Shown here: positions 1 through 6,264 of the stretch, in pieces
Position numbering within the stretch: the stretch's first letter is position 1
Layout of the letters: each line of letters begins with the position of its first letter
NCBI GenBank assembly: GCA_021202775.1
Contig: JAJQCJ010000020.1
Location: 22,627 to 64,024 of the forward strand
Source of the DNA: Clostridiales bacterium
Lineage (GTDB): Bacteria; Bacillota; Clostridia; Oscillospirales; Oscillospiraceae
Reading direction: 5' to 3'
Length of the DNA stretch: 41,398 nucleotides
Notes under the pieces: model-generated
Database searches by the model: none
What the model was told of the DNA's origin: nothing
Seen by the model: the letters and a program-made list of their open reading frames with translations, nothing else
Made by a program: the position numbers and the translations under genes

Positions 1-430
1 CCAGGGCGCAGACCAGCACCTCCTCCGTCTCATAGCAGTCCTCTGTGTGGGTGTGACCCTCGCTTTCCTCCAGCTCGCAGGTCAGATTGCCCTCCTCGTC
101 ATAGCAGTCCTCTGTGTGGGTGTGGCCCTCGCACTCCTCCAGTTCGCAGACCAGGGTGGTCACCGTTTCATAACAGTCCTCTGTGTGGGTGTGGCCTTCG
201 CTCTCCTCCAGGGTGCAGGTCAGCGCCGTCTCATAACAGTCCTCCGTGTGGGTATGTTCCTCCAGGCCGCAGTAAGTCTCGTTGGTCAGGGCGATGCCGG
301 TATAGTGAAGCTGCCAGAACACGCCGCAGGCGACCAGCAGCGCCAGAGCCAGCAGCAGAGAGGTCATCCGGCGGGCCTTCTGATGGTCCGCCCGGAACCG
401 CTCCACATAGGTATTCACTATGTTTTTCAT
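1..430 (-). CDS. Surface protein with GHTHTEDCY repeats, 3' end missing (partial)
   Basis: The frame is open from an ATG at 430 to the window edge, so only about 143 N-terminal residues are seen. A GGAGG site precedes the start. Residues 23-38 form a hydrophobic signal or anchor segment. After about residue 52 come four copies of a unit built on HTHTEDCY, at a DNA period of 69, 69 and 63 bp (31, 100, 169, 232), each followed by a Glu-rich C(T/E)LEE segment. Such His/Asp/Cys repeats occur in large cell-wall adhesins of gut Clostridia; metal binding is inference. It is the last visible gene of the pilus operon, 88 bp after a sortase, and may be the tip or an accessory adhesin. The remainder, including any LPXTG motif, lies outside the window. 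Confidence 0.75.
   Translation of the reverse strand, partial: MKNIVNTYVERFRADHQKARRMTSLLLALALLVACGVFWQLHYTGIALTNETYCGLEEHTHTEDCYETALTCTLEESEGHTHTEDCYETVTTLVCELEECEGHTHTEDCYDEEGNLTCELEESEGHTHTEDCYETEEVLVCAL
31..240 (-). repeat. Tandem 63-69-bp coding repeats
   Basis: Near-identical units starting CATARCAGTCCTCYGTGTGG (plus strand) recur at 31, 100, 169 and 232. They encode the HTHTEDCY motif of the partial surface protein. The high DNA identity between copies would allow copy-number change by recombination or slippage. Confidence 0.85.
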
Positions 431-518
431 AAACCTCCACCTCTGCTTTCGCCCCGGCGGCACCGCTGCCGCCTGATGTTGTCCGGGGAGCCGTCCCCGG
501 CGCAGAAATCTATTCCTG

Positions 519-1202
519 TCAGCCCGTCCGGCTGCACCGAACGGTCACCCGGGTCTGTCCACCGACGGTACAGGTGAACAGCGTCAGGTCCCATGCGCCG
601 GACTGCTGGCTTATCATCTCATCCACATCTGTCGGCTGAAGAATGACCACTTCCTCAACCGCGTATTGGAACACGGTGCCGCTGAGATCCGTAAAGGACA
701 GCGTGTCCCCCGGTTCCAGGTACTTCAAATTTCCGAAATGTCGGGCGTAGTTGTGCCCGCAAATGATCAGGTTCCCCGCCTCCGCGGAGCCGCTGTAGCG
801 GCCCGGGGCGATTTTCAGTCCCGCATAGCTCCACTCCGCCATGACGGGCAGCTCCAGCCCTAGGGCGGGGACGGTCAGAATGCCAATGTACTCATTGCCG
901 TCAAGGGCCACGGTCTCCGGCTGCGGGTCGGATGCCTCCGCCTCCGGCGACCCTTCGGCCTCCGGCTCAGCGTCGGACACCGCCTCAGCCTCCGGTTCGG
1001 CCTCGGCCTCCGAAGCGTCCTCTGCGGCGGCCTCCGCCGCCTCCACGTTGGCCTGAATGACCTCCTCCAGGGCGGCCTCCACCTGGTTGGCGGAGGTTCC
1101 GGCCCGGTAGTCGTCCCACCGGTTGTAAATCAGCAGGGCCAGGGCGGCCAGCAGGAGCACCAGCCCCAGCGCCATGCAAAGGGTGCTGAGCTTCTTCCTC
1201 AT
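519..1202 (-). CDS. Sortase (TLFTC-type transpeptidase)
   Basis: A 227-residue membrane-anchored sortase with an N-terminal transmembrane helix (residues 8-26), an Ala/Glu-rich linker (about 50-95) and a sortase beta-barrel. The catalytic residues are visible: His150 in ICGHNY, Cys211 in LTLFTCT and an Arg in RVTVRC (218 or 222). Sortases cleave LPXTG-like signals and join the protein to peptidoglycan or to the next pilin. The TLFTC form resembles class D/E-like or housekeeping enzymes more than the class C enzyme at 2091-2944, so it may anchor the finished pilus to the wall. Its ATG overlaps the stop of the minor pilin (ATGA), which implies translational coupling. The exact class is uncertain. 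Confidence 0.88.
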   Translation of the reverse strand: MRKKLSTLCMALGLVLLLAALALLIYNRWDDYRAGTSANQVEAALEEVIQANVEAAEAAAEDASEAEAEPEAEAVSDAEPEAEGSPEAEASDPQPETVALDGNEYIGILTVPALGLELPVMAEWSYAGLKIAPGRYSGSAEAGNLIICGHNYARHFGNLKYLEPGDTLSFTDLSGTVFQYAVEEVVILQPTDVDEMISQQSGAWDLTLFTCTVGGQTRVTVRCSRTG

Positions 1203-2077
1203 TCGTCTGTCTCTTTCCCGCCGGAGGCCCTCAGCCGCCAGCCCATAGCGAAGAGCAGCAGGCCGCAGACCGCCAGCACCGGTACCGGCCAGTTCAGCTG
1301 CCCGGTCTGGGGCAGGGTGGGTTCCTCCGGCTCTTCCGGCTCGTCGGGGGTGTCCGGCTCATCCGGTTCGTCAGGTTCGTCGGGATTGTCCGGTTCGTCG
1401 GGATTGTCCGGTTCGTCGGGTTCATCCGGGGTATCGGGTTCTTCCGGTTCTTCGGGTTCGTCTGGGTTATCGGGTTCGTCCGGCTCTTCGGGTTCCTCCG
1501 GCTCGTCCGGGGTATCGGGTTCGTCCGGTTCCTCCGGCTCGGTGGGCGTCACCGGCCCCACCTTGGGGCTGGCGTCCACCTCATAGTCCCACACGCCGTC
1601 ACTGTCCATGGGGACGGTGACGAGGAAGGGGTTGATGGTCTCATAGTTGTCGGAGGGGGTGGTCTGGACGATGAGGTACAGCCCCAGCGCCAGGCCGTCA
1701 AAGGTCACGGTGCCGTCCGCCCCCACGTCAGCGGCGGTGCCGCTGATGTCATTGTCCGCCGCATATCGGGCCAGTTCGGCGGCCAGGGCGGTGTCCGTCA
1801 CGTCCAGCTCGGCGCCGCAGCCCTGAAAGTCCTCGGTGTAGGTGTACGCCGCGCTGCCGTCCGCAAGGGACAATGTGGCCACATGATACAGGGTGAGTGT
1901 CCCGCCGGAGACCGGGTTCCCGTCCCCGTCCGTCAGAGTCACGGTGACGGAGCCGGTTCTGCTCAGGTCCGGAGACGTGTCCGCCGCCGCAAACGCAGTC
2001 ACTGCGGTGCCCAGCGTCAGCGCCAGGGCGGCCAGCAGGGCCAGCCCCCAGCGGGTCAGCCTATTGAATTGCGTCAT
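1199..2077 (-). CDS. LPXTG minor pilin with acidic Pro-rich stalk
   Basis: A 292-residue secreted wall protein. It has a Sec signal peptide (about 1-31, ending AFA-AAD), one pilin or Cna-B-like domain (about 40-170, with the GLALGLYLIVQT strand typical of SpaA-type folds), a stalk made almost only of E/D-E-P units (about 178-254), then LPQTG at 255-259, a hydrophobic helix and a charged tail. It lies between two sortase genes, 13 bp after the class C sortase, and has a GGAGG site upstream. It is probably the basal or minor subunit that the second sortase anchors, with the stalk spanning the wall. The stalk is low-complexity at DNA level, so repeat number may vary. Confidence 0.85.
   Translation of the reverse strand: MTQFNRLTRWGLALLAALALTLGTAVTAFAAADTSPDLSRTGSVTVTLTDGDGNPVSGGTLTLYHVATLSLADGSAAYTYTEDFQGCGAELDVTDTALAAELARYAADNDISGTAADVGADGTVTFDGLALGLYLIVQTTPSDNYETINPFLVTVPMDSDGVWDYEVDASPKVGPVTPTEPEEPDEPDTPDEPEEPEEPDEPDNPDEPEEPEEPDTPDEPDEPDNPDEPDNPDEPDEPDEPDTPDEPEEPEEPTLPQTGQLNWPVPVLAVCGLLLFAMGWRLRASGGKETDE
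1317..1545 (-). repeat. Low-complexity (E/D)EP-coding repeat
   Basis: About 230 bp of near-perfect short repeats (plus strand TCCGGYTCNTCGGG units, mostly 9-27 bp periods). They encode the wall-spanning stalk of the minor pilin. All unit lengths are multiples of three, so changes in copy number would keep the frame. Confidence 0.85.
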
Positions 2078-2090
2078 AACGGTTCGCCTC

Positions 2091-2944
2091 CTAGTGCTTC
2101 TTCCGGCGGGTGCTCACCAGCAGCCAAATCAGGAGAATCAGCAGCAGCGGCACGGCGGCCACCGACGCCACGATGAGCGTGTCGATCTGGTACGCCTCGG
2201 CGGTCACGCGAATCAGTTTGGTTTCCTCGGTCTCAATGCGCACGCCCCGGACCAGCAGCCGGTGGCTGTTGATGCCGTAGGGGGTGCAGGTCATCAGGGT
2301 GCAGTAGTCCTTCCCCTCCTCAATGTAGAGGTTTTCCGCCTCAGCGGGGAGGACGATGGTGATCTGGTCCACCTGATAGGTCAGCACCCGGTCCAGCACG
2401 GTGATGGTGAAGGTGTCCCCCACCTCCAGCTGGTCCAGATTGGTGAACAGCAGGGCGCTGGGGAGGCCCCGGTGGGCGGAGATGACGCAATGGGTGCTCT
2501 CGCCCCCACGGGGAGGCTGCTGCCCTCCAGGTGGCCCGCCGCGATTTGCAGCACGCCCTCGCTGGTGCCGTGGTAGATGGGCAGCTCCACATTGATTTTC
2601 TCAATGGTGATGTAGCCCATGATGCCGGTGGTGCTGATGTCCAGAATTTCCTCATAGCCCTCCACCGGCTCGTCGGACAGGAGGGCGGCGGCGGAGCCCA
2701 GGGCGGCCAACGCCTGGTTGTAGGCGTCGGCGGCCTCAAAGATGGCGGAATAGTCCTCTTCCTCCATCTCGTTCACCGCCGTGTCGTACTCTGCAATGAG
2801 CTTGCCGGCCCCTCTGGTGTTCCACCAGTTGCTGAAGGAGGGGTAAATCAGGAGGGACAGGCCCAGGAGGAACACGCACACCAGCACCACAGTGCCGGCC
2901 CGGCCCTGTTTCCGCGCCCCGGGCTGCTTCTTGCTGCGTTTCAT
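2091..2944 (-). pseudogene. Class C (pilin-polymerising) sortase, frameshifted
   Basis: The N-terminal frame (2944 to about 2508) gives a transmembrane helix and the sortase core as far as HLEGSSLPVG. The rest is in another frame: the catalytic His segment CVISAHRG, the Cys in LMTCTPYG, the Arg in HRLLVRG and a C-terminal transmembrane helix ending RRKKH. The break falls in a run of five C at 2503-2507 (G on the coding strand). One extra base restores an unbroken 284-residue class C sortase, a normal length. Such enzymes link pilin subunits through a pilin-motif lysine. As sequenced, the enzyme would lose His, Cys and Arg. It may be a real mutation, a phase-variable tract or a sequencing error. 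A GGAGG stands directly against the ATG, so the start is a little uncertain. Confidence 0.85.
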
Positions 2945-3032: not shown

Positions 3033-4692
3033 TCAGTCCTTGTTCATGCGTCTTCTGGTGATGAGCACCACCACGGCGCCAACCACCAGCACGCCGCCCA
3101 CCACATAGAAGATGGTGGTGCCGATGTCGCCGGTGGTGGGCAGGTTACTGCCGGAGTAGTTGATAATGTTGGTGGAAATCGTGCCGTTGGTTGTACTCGT
3201 AGTAAAGGTATGCGAAGTCGTAATACCTGACGTTTCGCCGGTTTCATCCGTCTGAACCACAGTCAGCGATTTAATATATCCAGTTCCGTTAGCGTCTTCT
3301 GAGTGCTCCGCAGTTATCTTAAAGTAAATGGGGTCAAAAGTAAATGGGGTCAATCGTGTCGTAACCGGCCGGCGTCACGGTTTCCACAAGCTTATATTGG
3401 CCATCATCCAGGCCCGTGAAGGTGAAAACGTTGGTGTCCGTCCCGGTGATGACGGCGACTTCCTCATATTGACCCGTCTCCGCATTATACTTGTACAGTG
3501 TAAATTCCGCACCGTTCAGAGCGGTGCCGGTGGTGTTCGCGTACTTATTGACCACCAGCGTAAAGTAGAACACGGTCACAATATCCTTCGGCGTGGTACC
3601 GGTCTCCAAATCATCATAGGGATTGTTGGAGTACTCCAGGTACATTGTGTTGGTTTCCTGCCAGGCTGCAGTTGACAACAGCTCCGCAGTATAGGACACC
3701 GTCACCGTGTAGCCTGCGGCCACGGTGATCAGGTCACCGTTTTCGTCATAGAGCGCCTTTAGATCTTCAAAGACAACCTCGAAGGTGCAGTCATCCGTCG
3801 GGTCAGTAACAACGGTGTAGTTGGTATGTGTTACTGCATTTACCGTTGTCTTTTGGGGAACGGTCACAATACTTGTGCCGCTGGCGTTTGTAACGGTTAC
3901 AGTCACAGAGCTCTCATTAAATTCCAGACCATCCGACAGCGTATCGTGGAAGGTCAGGCTATAGAAGTCATACTCGCCGAATTTTGTGCCCAGCGTGGCG
4001 GTCAGAGTGAAGGGCACATCGTCGCCGATGTCATAGTCCGCAGTAGAATCGTAGGTGGTGGTTGATGTACTGGAGGAATCATTCACATCGCCGACCTTCT
4101 TCTCGCCGGAGGGGACGGAGGTTTTCGGGTTGACCTGCGCATTGCCCACGACCTTGATGACATTAAAGGAATAAGAAGCGTTGGTGCTGTCCGGCACGTC
4201 TGTATTTACAATCAGATAATAGCCCGCCGCAACGCCGGTGGCCGTGTAAGTACCGGTTGAGGCGTCATAAGTGAACGCAATTTTAGCACTATTATTAACA
4301 CAAGCCGCAACGATTTCTGAAAACGCTTCCATTTCGTCGGAGTCGGTTGTAATAGAATCCGAGGTCAAAATTTTCGCAACATCTTCTGCCGTCGAGGTGC
4401 TTGTAATGGTGTCGAACAGTCCGTACAGGGCGCTGTCCGGATCTGCGGAGGCTGTCTGCAGTGCCGCCAGCAGCGCATCCGAATCGACGCCGTCGCCCCA
4501 CTCAATGTTGGACAGTATGCCGTCGGAGTCGGAATAGTCGCCTTTGAAAATCTGGTACGCATAGTATGTGTAGCCTTCCGTGCTGTTGTTAATGGTGATC
4601 GTATAGGTGTCCGCCGCAAACGCAGGGCAGGTCAGGCCGAAGCACATCACCAGGGCCAGCAGCAGGCTGGCCAGCTTTTTCAGTTTACGCAT
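3033..4692 (-). pseudogene. Major LPXTG pilin, disrupted by a 16-bp duplication
   Basis: The first frame (4692-3334) encodes 452 residues: signal peptide ending AFA, an N-terminal pilin domain, the pilin-motif lysine in AQVNPKTS, a D2-type isopeptide domain, a second Cna-B-like domain and the E-box YKLVETVTPAGY. It then stops. The next frame (ending 3033) supplies the rest of the last domain, LPTTG, a hydrophobic helix and an RRRMNKD tail. The join is a perfect 16-bp tandem repeat at 3321-3352. Removing one copy restores a continuous 547-residue SpaH/EbpB-type backbone pilin with LPTTG at about 512. As sequenced, the product would be secreted without a sorting signal and could be neither polymerised nor anchored. 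It follows signal peptidase I and precedes its cognate sortase. AAAGGAG precedes the start. Confidence 0.88.
3321..3352 (-). repeat. 16-bp perfect tandem duplication inside the major pilin
   Basis: Two adjacent copies of AAAGTAAATGGGGTCA (plus strand) at 3321-3336 and 3337-3352. The unit is not a multiple of three, so it moves the reading frame just before the last domain and the sorting signal. Confidence 0.97.
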
Positions 4693-4846: not shown

Positions 4847-5434
4847 TCAATGCAAAATGGAAATCTGTTCCAGCGGCCAGATGCGGAGAATCACCTTCCC
4901 CAGAATCTGGTCCGTCTCAATACAGCCGATGGCGGTGGAGCGAGAGTCGATGGAGGTGGTTCTGTTGTCCCCCATCACAAAGTAACGGCCCTCCGGCACC
5001 TGATAGGGATAGTCCCGGTCGGTCTCCCCCAGGGCCTTCTCCGTCACATACGGCTCGTCCAGCAGTTTGTCGTTGACATAGACGCTGCCATCCTCGTCAA
5101 TATCCACCACGTCCCCCGGCCCGGCGATGACCCGTTTCAGCAGCAGCTTGTTCTGGTAGTAGAACCCCACCAGGTCGCCGGTCTCGAACTCCCCGCTTTT
5201 CAGCAGGACGATGACGTCCCCGTCGGAGAGGGTGGGCTCCATACTGCTGCCGGACACCTGGAGGACGGGCAGCACCATGGTGGCAATCAGCACCGCCACC
5301 GCCGCCACCACCACCAGGGCGTAAACGGTGGTGCGCAGGGTCCGGAGGTACCGCTTCTGATAGTTCAGCCGTTCCCGCTCCGCGGCCACGGCCTCCTCCG
5401 TGGGGAGGGTGACATACTTTGGCTTTTCGTTCAT
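4847..5434 (-). CDS. lepB: Signal peptidase I (pilus-locus type)
   Basis: A 195-residue type I signal peptidase. An N-terminal cytoplasmic stretch with the LNYQKRYLRTLR segment precedes one transmembrane helix (about 37-57). Ser64 in SGSSMEPT is the catalytic nucleophile and Lys100 in LLLKRVIAGPGD is the general base; the MGDNR box follows. It removes signal peptides of exported proteins at the outer membrane face. Its place between the coiled-coil gene and the major pilin suggests a dedicated SipA-like role in pilin processing or assembly. GGGGAGG precedes the ATG. Both catalytic residues are present, so it should be active, unlike some SipA chaperones that lack the dyad. Confidence 0.93.
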   Translation of the reverse strand: MNEKPKYVTLPTEEAVAAERERLNYQKRYLRTLRTTVYALVVVAAVAVLIATMVLPVLQVSGSSMEPTLSDGDVIVLLKSGEFETGDLVGFYYQNKLLLKRVIAGPGDVVDIDEDGSVYVNDKLLDEPYVTEKALGETDRDYPYQVPEGRYFVMGDNRTTSIDSRSTAIGCIETDQILGKVILRIWPLEQISILH

Positions 5435-5497: not shown

Positions 5498-6034
5498 CTA
5501 CGGCTCCAGCCTCTGTTCCCATACGTCCTCCCACATATGCCAGGCCAGGCCGGGGTACTTCTCCAGCGCCCGCCGGACGCTCCGGCGGAAGGCGGCGTCC
5601 TTCTGTTGGGCGAATTCCTCCGCCTGGGCTATCCGGGCCTGATAGTCCGCCTCCGCCTGGGCCAGCCGGGCTTCGGCGGCGGCATCTGCCCGGGCCAGCC
5701 GGGCCTGACAGTCCGCCTCGATTTGGTCGGCCTGGGCCTGGGCCTCGGCCAGCCGGGCGTCGACCTGGGTCAGACGCTGCTGCGCCTGGTCGTTGGCCGC
5801 CTCCAGGGAGGAGAGGTACTGCGCCGCCGCCTGCTGGGCGTCCTCAAAGATGTGGTTCAGGCTCAGGGAGGCCTCCGCGATGGAGCCCGCCTGCTCCAGC
5901 CGCAGGAGCCGGTCGTCCAGCTGCCGCTGCAGGACCTCGTTCTGCTCCCGGAGGGTTTTCTCGTTCTGCTGCAGGGCGTAGATGATTTCGATCAGCTCCG
6001 TGCGGTTCATCCTGCGCAATTCTTTTTCCGCCAT
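5498..6034 (-). CDS. Coiled-coil protein, first gene of pilus operon
   Basis: A 178-residue protein with an N-terminal MNRTELIEIIYALQ helix followed by long Ala/Gln/Glu heptads (about 20-160), predicted to be one coiled coil, and a Trp-rich tail (AWHMWEDVWE). It has no signal peptide or membrane segment, so it should be cytoplasmic. It resembles small DivIVA-like or trigger-type coiled coils that accompany signal peptidase genes in Clostridia pilus loci, but no function is known to me. It may organise assembly at the membrane or the septum. It is the first gene behind the promoter at 6145-6173 and 63 bp before the signal peptidase. A second ATG (MNRTEL) eight codons in is a possible alternative start. 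Confidence 0.75.
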   Translation of the reverse strand: MAEKELRRMNRTELIEIIYALQQNEKTLREQNEVLQRQLDDRLLRLEQAGSIAEASLSLNHIFEDAQQAAAQYLSSLEAANDQAQQRLTQVDARLAEAQAQADQIEADCQARLARADAAAEARLAQAEADYQARIAQAEEFAQQKDAAFRRSVRRALEKYPGLAWHMWEDVWEQRLEP

Positions 6035-6144: not shown

Positions 6145-6173
6145 TTTATAACTATTTTACAACTATTTTACAA
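6145..6173 (-). promoter_or_regulatory. Putative pilus operon promoter
   Basis: On the minus strand, TTGTAA (6168-6173) is separated by 17 bp from TATAAA (6145-6150), in an AT-rich pocket about 110 bp before the first gene. The -35 element lies within the 11-bp repeats. Confidence 0.55.
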
Positions 6174-6182
6174 CTACTTTAC
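6150..6182. repeat. Three 11-bp direct repeats overlapping the pilus promoter
   Basis: AACTATTTTAC, AACTATTTTAC and AACTACTTTAC follow each other without a gap at 6150, 6161 and 6172. One-helical-turn phasing places the copies on one face of the helix, as expected for a cooperative DNA-binding regulator. They cover the -35 region. Confidence 0.8.
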
Positions 6183-6264
6183 AATAGTCAATGTAGCACT
6201 TTTCGTGGAAAATTGCAAGACCTCCTATGAAAAGATGTAGAAGTTTGTAAAAAATGACAATTAG

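What the first reader, a model, noticed from the sequence alone, without database searches (positions are those of the whole stretch)
3321..3352. 16-bp tandem duplication switches the major pilin out of frame just before its sorting signal
Two perfect copies of a 16-bp unit stop the backbone pilin at residue 452. Deleting one copy restores a 547-residue protein with E-box, LPTTG and anchor. Perfect tandem copies of non-triplet length are classic slipped-strand sites, so this may be an on/off switch: off gives a secreted, unanchored pilin; on gives a polymerisable one. The rest of the gene is intact, which argues against old decay.
Basis: partly seen in the sequence, partly recalled or inferred. 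Interest (0 to 1): 0.8.

Follow-up and report, generated by a model that had tools for sequence, protein, structure and literature searches.

The report
Tandem duplication breaking a pilus gene
In one draft genome of an uncultured Clostridia-type bacterium, a 16-letter stretch of the main pilus gene is repeated and throws the gene out of frame; it looks like a recent, private and in principle revertible mutation rather than a proven on/off switch.

Summary
Window 3321-3353 carries two perfect 16-bp copies plus one further base; 0 of 40 shuffles gave anything like it. They split the genome's only detected backbone pilin into a 452-aa N-terminal piece and an out-of-frame LPTTG anchor piece. In intact relatives both copies fall on the same residues, so the second copy is an insertion.

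The switch reading has no support beyond the fact that tandem copies can revert. Of 88 distinct relative loci, 72 keep pilin and anchor in one ORF; none of 90 relative ORFs scanned has a non-triplet perfect tandem copy of 10-90 bp. One base of homology flanks the unit, so a single-copy gene would have no built-in repeat. The E-box survives the break; 59 residues before LPTTG are lost with the anchor. Best reading: a young, private, revertible loss-of-function duplication.

The parts
3321..3353 (-). 16-bp perfect tandem duplication (copies 3321-3336 and 3337-3352) plus one further matching base
3334..4692 (-). N-terminal piece of the backbone pilin, 452 aa: signal peptide (by eye), GramPos_pilinBB, most of a SpaA domain, E-box-like motif
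3033..3353 (-). C-terminal piece of the pilin in another frame: end of the last domain, LPTTG, membrane anchor
2381..2944 (-). sortase, N-terminal piece (the frame is homologous only up to the G run)
2091..2423 (-). sortase, C-terminal piece in another frame (frame open from about 2600)
1199..2077 (-). minor pilin-like protein with LPQTG and a repetitive acidic linker, one ORF; SpaA match 22.3 bits, just under the cut-off of 23.1
519..1202 (-). second sortase, one ORF
2..463 (-). start of a large surface protein with THTEDCY repeats; continues outside the window across a 100-base N gap into a 1185-aa ORF with LPSTG
4847..5434 (-). signal peptidase (Peptidase_S26)
5498..6034 (-). coiled-coil-like protein, no Pfam match (coiled coil judged by eye)

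Best explanation
A recent 16-bp tandem duplication has broken the reading frame of the only detected backbone pilin gene of this genome. Ribosomes would stop after 452 residues, inside the last SpaA-type domain, so the product keeps its signal peptide and E-box but loses the end of that domain, the sorting signal and the membrane anchor. It could be secreted but not joined by its C-terminus to a growing pilus or to the wall (inferred). Because the two copies are perfect and adjacent, loss of one copy by slippage or misalignment is possible in principle (inferred), which makes this a revertible loss of function in the sampled cells. Nothing shows that it is an evolved switch: the repeat is private, and a single-copy gene would hold no repeat that favours duplication.
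For: Perfect array, unique in the genome. Both copies fall on the same residues of intact relatives, so the second is derived. 72 of 88 distinct relative loci have pilin and anchor in one ORF. 0 of 90 scanned relative ORFs has a non-triplet perfect tandem copy of 10-90 bp. Exact unit in 1 of 32 genus genomes, this one. Identical copies and open frames on both sides suggest youth. One base of homology outside the unit.
Against: No reads or sister strains could be examined, so polymorphism is not excluded. The same operon has a second break and other genes of the draft change frame at G runs, so consensus error is a live rival. Broken or anchorless pilin ORFs occur in other drafts of the genus (L008, L013, L015, L018), which could also be read as frequent switching or misassembly.
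Confidence: 0.58

Rival explanations
1. Assembly or consensus artefact: the second copy was introduced by a faulty join or by a mixture of strains, and the living gene is in frame.
For: The sortase beside it and three other genes of a 279-kb sample change frame at G runs, among them RNase PH. The contig is scaffolded, with a 100-base N gap in the same operon. Several genus relatives have contigs that end in, or change frame or content inside, the pilin gene (L008/L072, L013/L073, L015/L074).
Against: A 16-bp duplication is a different kind of error from a homopolymer error; the 33-bp array is short enough for ordinary reads to span (inference). No N gap lies at the array.
Confidence: 0.23
2. 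Working phase-variation switch: copy number toggles by slipped-strand mispairing, so that some cells make polymerisable pilin and the rest do not.
For: Perfect adjacent non-triplet copies in a surface-structure gene; precedents are sortase pili of Bifidobacterium breve with G tracts (PMC9187656), pil1 of Streptococcus gallolyticus with leader repeats (PMC3894217) and capsule genes of pneumococcus with sequence duplications (PMC4243769). It is the only detected backbone pilin.
Against: Only two copies; private to this genome; no comparable repeat in 90 relative ORFs; one base of homology outside the unit, so the reverse step has no built-in repeat; sortase also out of frame.
Confidence: 0.15
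3. Recoding: ribosomes slip forward at the stop codon of the first frame (UUU UGA C) and read on into the anchor frame, giving some anchored pilin with a few duplicated residues.
For: The first frame ends in UUU UGA C within four U's (sequence), similar in kind to the release-factor-2 site (recalled).
Against: By eye there is no Shine-Dalgarno-like stimulator in front (sequence). The context is a by-product of the duplication. No test was made.
Confidence: 0.03

Closest known systems
Spontaneous tandem sequence duplications in pneumococcal capsule genes (cap3A, cap8E, tts; Waite et al. 2001 and 2003, seen only as citations in PMC4243769)
   Same: A duplication inside a coding gene for a surface structure, described as spontaneous and reversible
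   Different: There both states were observed; here only one state of one draft genome is known. The sequences of those duplications were not compared
G-tract pilus switch of Bifidobacterium breve UCC2003 (PMC9187656; abstract and passages)
   Same: A slippage site inside a coding gene of a sortase-pilus operon, in a gut commensal; truncated versus complete pilus product
   Different: Homopolymer of about 10 G with equivalents in other Bifidobacterium; here a private two-copy 16-bp repeat
pil1 of Streptococcus gallolyticus (PMC3894217; abstract and passages)
   Same: Repeat-number change controls a sortase pilus
   Different: Pentamer repeats lie in an upstream leader and act through transcription attenuation
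De novo tandem repeats in the PenA beta-lactamase gene of Burkholderia thailandensis (PMC4169377; abstract and passages)
   Same: New short tandem duplications in a coding gene with high reversion
   Different: Those change substrate range rather than break the frame (by the passages seen); one group was bordered by 3-8 base direct repeats, here one base

Membership tests
Sortase-assembled pilus operon (SpaA/FimA type) | Backbone pilin with SpaA/CnaB-type domains beside sortase genes | tested here: met
   GramPos_pilinBB and SpaA matches; two sortases and a signal peptidase adjacent; solved FimA-like pilins match the N piece at 1.5e-35
Sortase-assembled pilus operon (SpaA/FimA type) | LPXTG sorting signal and anchor in frame with the pilin domains | tested here: not met
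   Present but in another frame in this assembly; in frame in 72 of 88 distinct relative loci
Sortase-assembled pilus operon (SpaA/FimA type) | Pilin motif with the linking lysine | tested here: inconclusive
   One regular expression gave no match in the pieces; an NPK is seen by eye in the N piece
Phase variation by short-sequence repeats or tandem duplication | Perfect repeat of non-triplet length in a coding gene that shifts the frame | tested here: met
Phase variation by short-sequence repeats or tandem duplication | Two or more copy-number states in a population or among strains | not testable with these tools
   No reads and no second genome of the species held; viral contigs gave no relative
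Phase variation by short-sequence repeats or tandem duplication | Switching in both directions at high rate | not testable with these tools
   Rates cannot be measured here; one base of homology outside the unit argues against frequent re-duplication
Phase variation by short-sequence repeats or tandem duplication | Repeat site kept among related genes (supporting, not strictly defining) | tested here: not met
   0 of 90 relative ORFs scanned has a non-triplet perfect tandem copy of 10-90 bp; five of 7-8 bp exist; exact unit in 1 of 32 genus genomes

The most novel reading that the evidence does not exclude
A double-locked pilus switch: the 16-bp tandem copy in the pilin and the G run in its sortase both vary in the living population, so that only cells in which both genes are in frame build pili. 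This would be bet-hedging by two independent slippage sites in one operon of an uncultured Clostridia-type bacterium.
Probability: 0.06. Interest if true: 0.55.

Novelty: new member of a known kind. Interest (0 to 1): 0.25.

Why it matters
If the copy number does vary in nature, it would add a pilus backbone gene of uncultured Clostridia to the surface genes toggled by a tandem duplication, and the claim is directly testable with reads. As it stands, it mainly shows how a sequence signature of phase variation has to be weighed against private mutations and consensus errors in draft genomes.

Tried and rejected
Looked for another carrier of the unit: in this genome only the two copies; in 32 genus genomes exact only here, with 2-mismatch matches in G002 (one) and G028 (two) that were not examined further. 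Viral contigs: 3 stretches matched a pattern, none a relative. No second genome of the species was available.

Looked for a conserved slippage site in relative pilins: none. Rejected 'old decay': copies identical, both frames open. Rejected 'the rest is intact' for the operon: the sortase is split.

Ab initio frame-break scan of 278,858 bases of G000: 86 candidates. The junction peptides of all 86 were read by eye (5 pairs, 61, the remaining 22; two pairs were seen in both 35 and 37). Most are antisense shadows or normal gene neighbours. Kept: the sortase, three other genes, and a pair at the N gap of the large surface protein. The scan missed the pilin break itself, so it is not sensitive and three is a lower bound; the sorting was not blind. 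Two of the three are backed by Pfam matches split over two frames; the third has no Pfam match and rests on a repeated domain seen by eye. A check for contaminant contigs in the sample was not made (the draft is rated 2.95% contaminated).

One search gave many chance pairs from antisense frames and its output was cut; only the two window pairs with more than 40 subjects were used. Survey: 91 loci given, 3 duplicates, 88 distinct: 65 with one ORF and anchor, 7 the same but touching a locus end, 6 large other proteins, 6 with no anchor near the ORF end (L008, L013, L015, L018, L053, L096), 3 running off, 1 without a hit (L017). The tally takes the best ORF per locus, so it hides defects elsewhere: L027 has a second pilin with two in-frame stops and L039 an in-frame stop near its start. 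Against my reading: anchorless pilin ORFs are not rare in drafts of this genus.

Paper searches; two gave nothing used. Structure prediction and fold search were not used.

Full report
WHAT WAS CHECKED. The window is bases 22627-64024 of contig C149 of a 2.52-Mb draft in 174 contigs (95% complete, 2.95% contamination). TRF places a perfect array at 3321-3353: period 16, 2.1 copies, 100% matches; the period-16 match runs for 17 bases. Forty order-1 Markov shuffles of the window gave no perfect non-triplet tandem copy of period 14-80, and the window has one. At up to two mismatches the unit is found nowhere else in the genome.

WHAT IT INTERRUPTS. The minus-strand ORF 4692-3334 codes for 452 residues with Pfam GramPos_pilinBB (1.9e-16) and SpaA (1e-12); ORF 3353-3033 carries Gram_pos_anchor (7.6e-07). 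The N piece matches four distinct solved sequences named FimA-like or surface proteins (9uvm, 9uvr, 8wg6, 8wxd; best 1.5e-35), reaching residue 399 of the 479-residue 9uvm chain. An intact relative, L022, aligns with 9uvr and 9uvm nearly end to end, through LPXTG. So this is the backbone pilin of a sortase pilus. The operon, read on the minus strand, is: coiled-coil-like protein (by eye), signal peptidase, backbone pilin, sortase, minor pilin, second sortase, large anchored protein. It holds the only SpaA match above cut-off in the genome, the only relative of the N piece there, and two of the genome's four sortase matches.

THE SECOND COPY IS THE DERIVED STATE. In intact relatives the end of the N piece and the start of the C piece fall on the same residues, for example N 452 on L022 residue 417 and C 5 on residue 411; the 11-row alignment (two window pieces, nine relatives) shows the same columns used twice. 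Of 91 loci examined, 88 are distinct; 65 have pilin and anchor in one ORF and 7 more do but touch a locus end; 6 are large other proteins, 6 have no anchor near the ORF end, 3 run off the locus and 1 had no hit.

The E-box-like LVETVTPAGY is at residues 435-444, before the break, so it is in the truncated product too. Between the duplicated stretch and LPTTG lie 59 residues that align with the C-terminal part of relatives. The truncated form therefore loses part of its last domain, and may fold poorly (inference), not only its anchor.

A SECOND BREAK NEXT DOOR. The adjacent sortase is split into ORFs 2381-2944 and 2091-2423; 42 subject ORFs from other loci support the split, against 45 for the pilin. 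Of 67 relative loci with a sortase match (duplicates not removed), 61 have both halves in one ORF, and in the other 6 the ORF runs into a locus end. That tally hides an in-frame TAG near the start of the L040 sortase and a second, fragmented sortase in L048. In the window the frame changes at a short run of G.

IS THE ASSEMBLY TO BE TRUSTED? I took 20 further stretches of the genome, 217,833 bases, and, with 61,025 bases of the window's contig, scanned 278,858 bases for frame changes. All 86 candidates were read by eye. Three further genes change frame, each at or beside a run of G: an FMN-dependent dehydrogenase and a repeat-domain protein in L131, and RNase PH in L141. Pfam supports the first and the last: FMN_dh positions 16-102 and 204-349 in different frames, RNase_PH and RNase_PH_C in different frames; the repeat-domain protein has no Pfam match. 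The scan missed the pilin break itself, so three is a lower bound. Three in about 273 kb outside the operon would give about 0.07 in 6 kb, so a second break beside a chosen one has a chance of roughly 6% (my arithmetic): suggestive, not strong. Breaks of one kind in housekeeping genes point to consensus error, and the sortase break may be one more. The 16-bp duplication is of another kind and is more likely real DNA in at least part of the population (inference).

IS IT A SWITCH? A switch should be visible as a kept repeat site in relatives, or as two states in a population. The first was tested: in 191,334 bases of 90 relative ORFs (large other proteins and duplicates included), scanned for periods 7-90, there were five non-triplet perfect tandem copies, of 7-8 bp each. 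Among 32 genomes of the genus the exact unit is in G000 alone; G002 and G028 have matches with 2 mismatches that I did not examine. The second could not be tested. The anatomy is one-sided: two adjacent perfect copies can lose one, but outside the unit only one base repeats, so a single-copy gene would have little to favour duplication (inference). In the beta-lactamase study one group of duplications was bordered by direct repeats of 3-8 bases, while another was ascribed to other paired elements (PMC4169377, abstract and passages).

PRECEDENTS. Pneumococcal capsule expression is reported to be lost through spontaneous, reversible sequence duplication (PMC4243769, passages; the Waite papers cited there were not read). 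Sortase pili are switched by G tracts in B. breve (PMC9187656, abstract and passages) and by leader repeats in S. gallolyticus (PMC3894217, abstract and passages). A search for papers holding 'phase variation', 'pilin', 'clostridia', 'gut' and 'sortase' gave five, of which only PMC9187656 is a study of such a switch, judged from the listing. So the principle is known; this would be one more instance if real.

VERDICT. Observation right, mechanism unproven. Most likely a young, private, revertible loss-of-function duplication (0.58); artefact 0.23; working switch 0.15; recoding 0.03.

Noticed in passing
window 2091-2944 (-): The sortase beside the pilin is split over two frames at a short G run.
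   Followed up: yes
window 6145-6184: 11-bp direct repeats (3.6 copies, 93% matches) upstream of the pilus operon, overlapping promoter-like sites on both strands; possibly regulator-binding sites (inference).
   Followed up: no
L131 about 9728 and 19620; L141 about 8499: An FMN-dependent dehydrogenase, a repeat-domain protein and RNase PH of the same genome change frame at or beside G runs.
   Followed up: partly
L066 19528-19627; L131 424-433; L140 3896-3905: N gaps, one of 100 bases in the repeats of the large surface protein, and poly-C-rich sequence beside the two 10-base gaps.
   Followed up: no
L027 4892-6776; L039 4937-7031; L040 6639-7572: In-frame stops inside relatives: TAA and TGA in the second pilin of L027, TAA near the start of the L039 pilin (same gene as L118), TAG in the L040 sortase.
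   Followed up: partly
L096 1497-4077: Pilin and sortase lie in one 860-aa ORF without a stop between them; the LPGTG motif is internal.
   Followed up: no
L072, L074, L077: Genus relatives whose pilin-like gene changes frame or content partway: L072 passes into an unrelated-looking frame, L074 and L077 change frame near a GYY motif. No tandem copy of period 10-80 was listed for them.
   Followed up: partly
window 1319-1541: 9/18/45-bp repeats code for the acidic, proline-rich linker of the minor pilin; periods are multiples of three.
   Followed up: no
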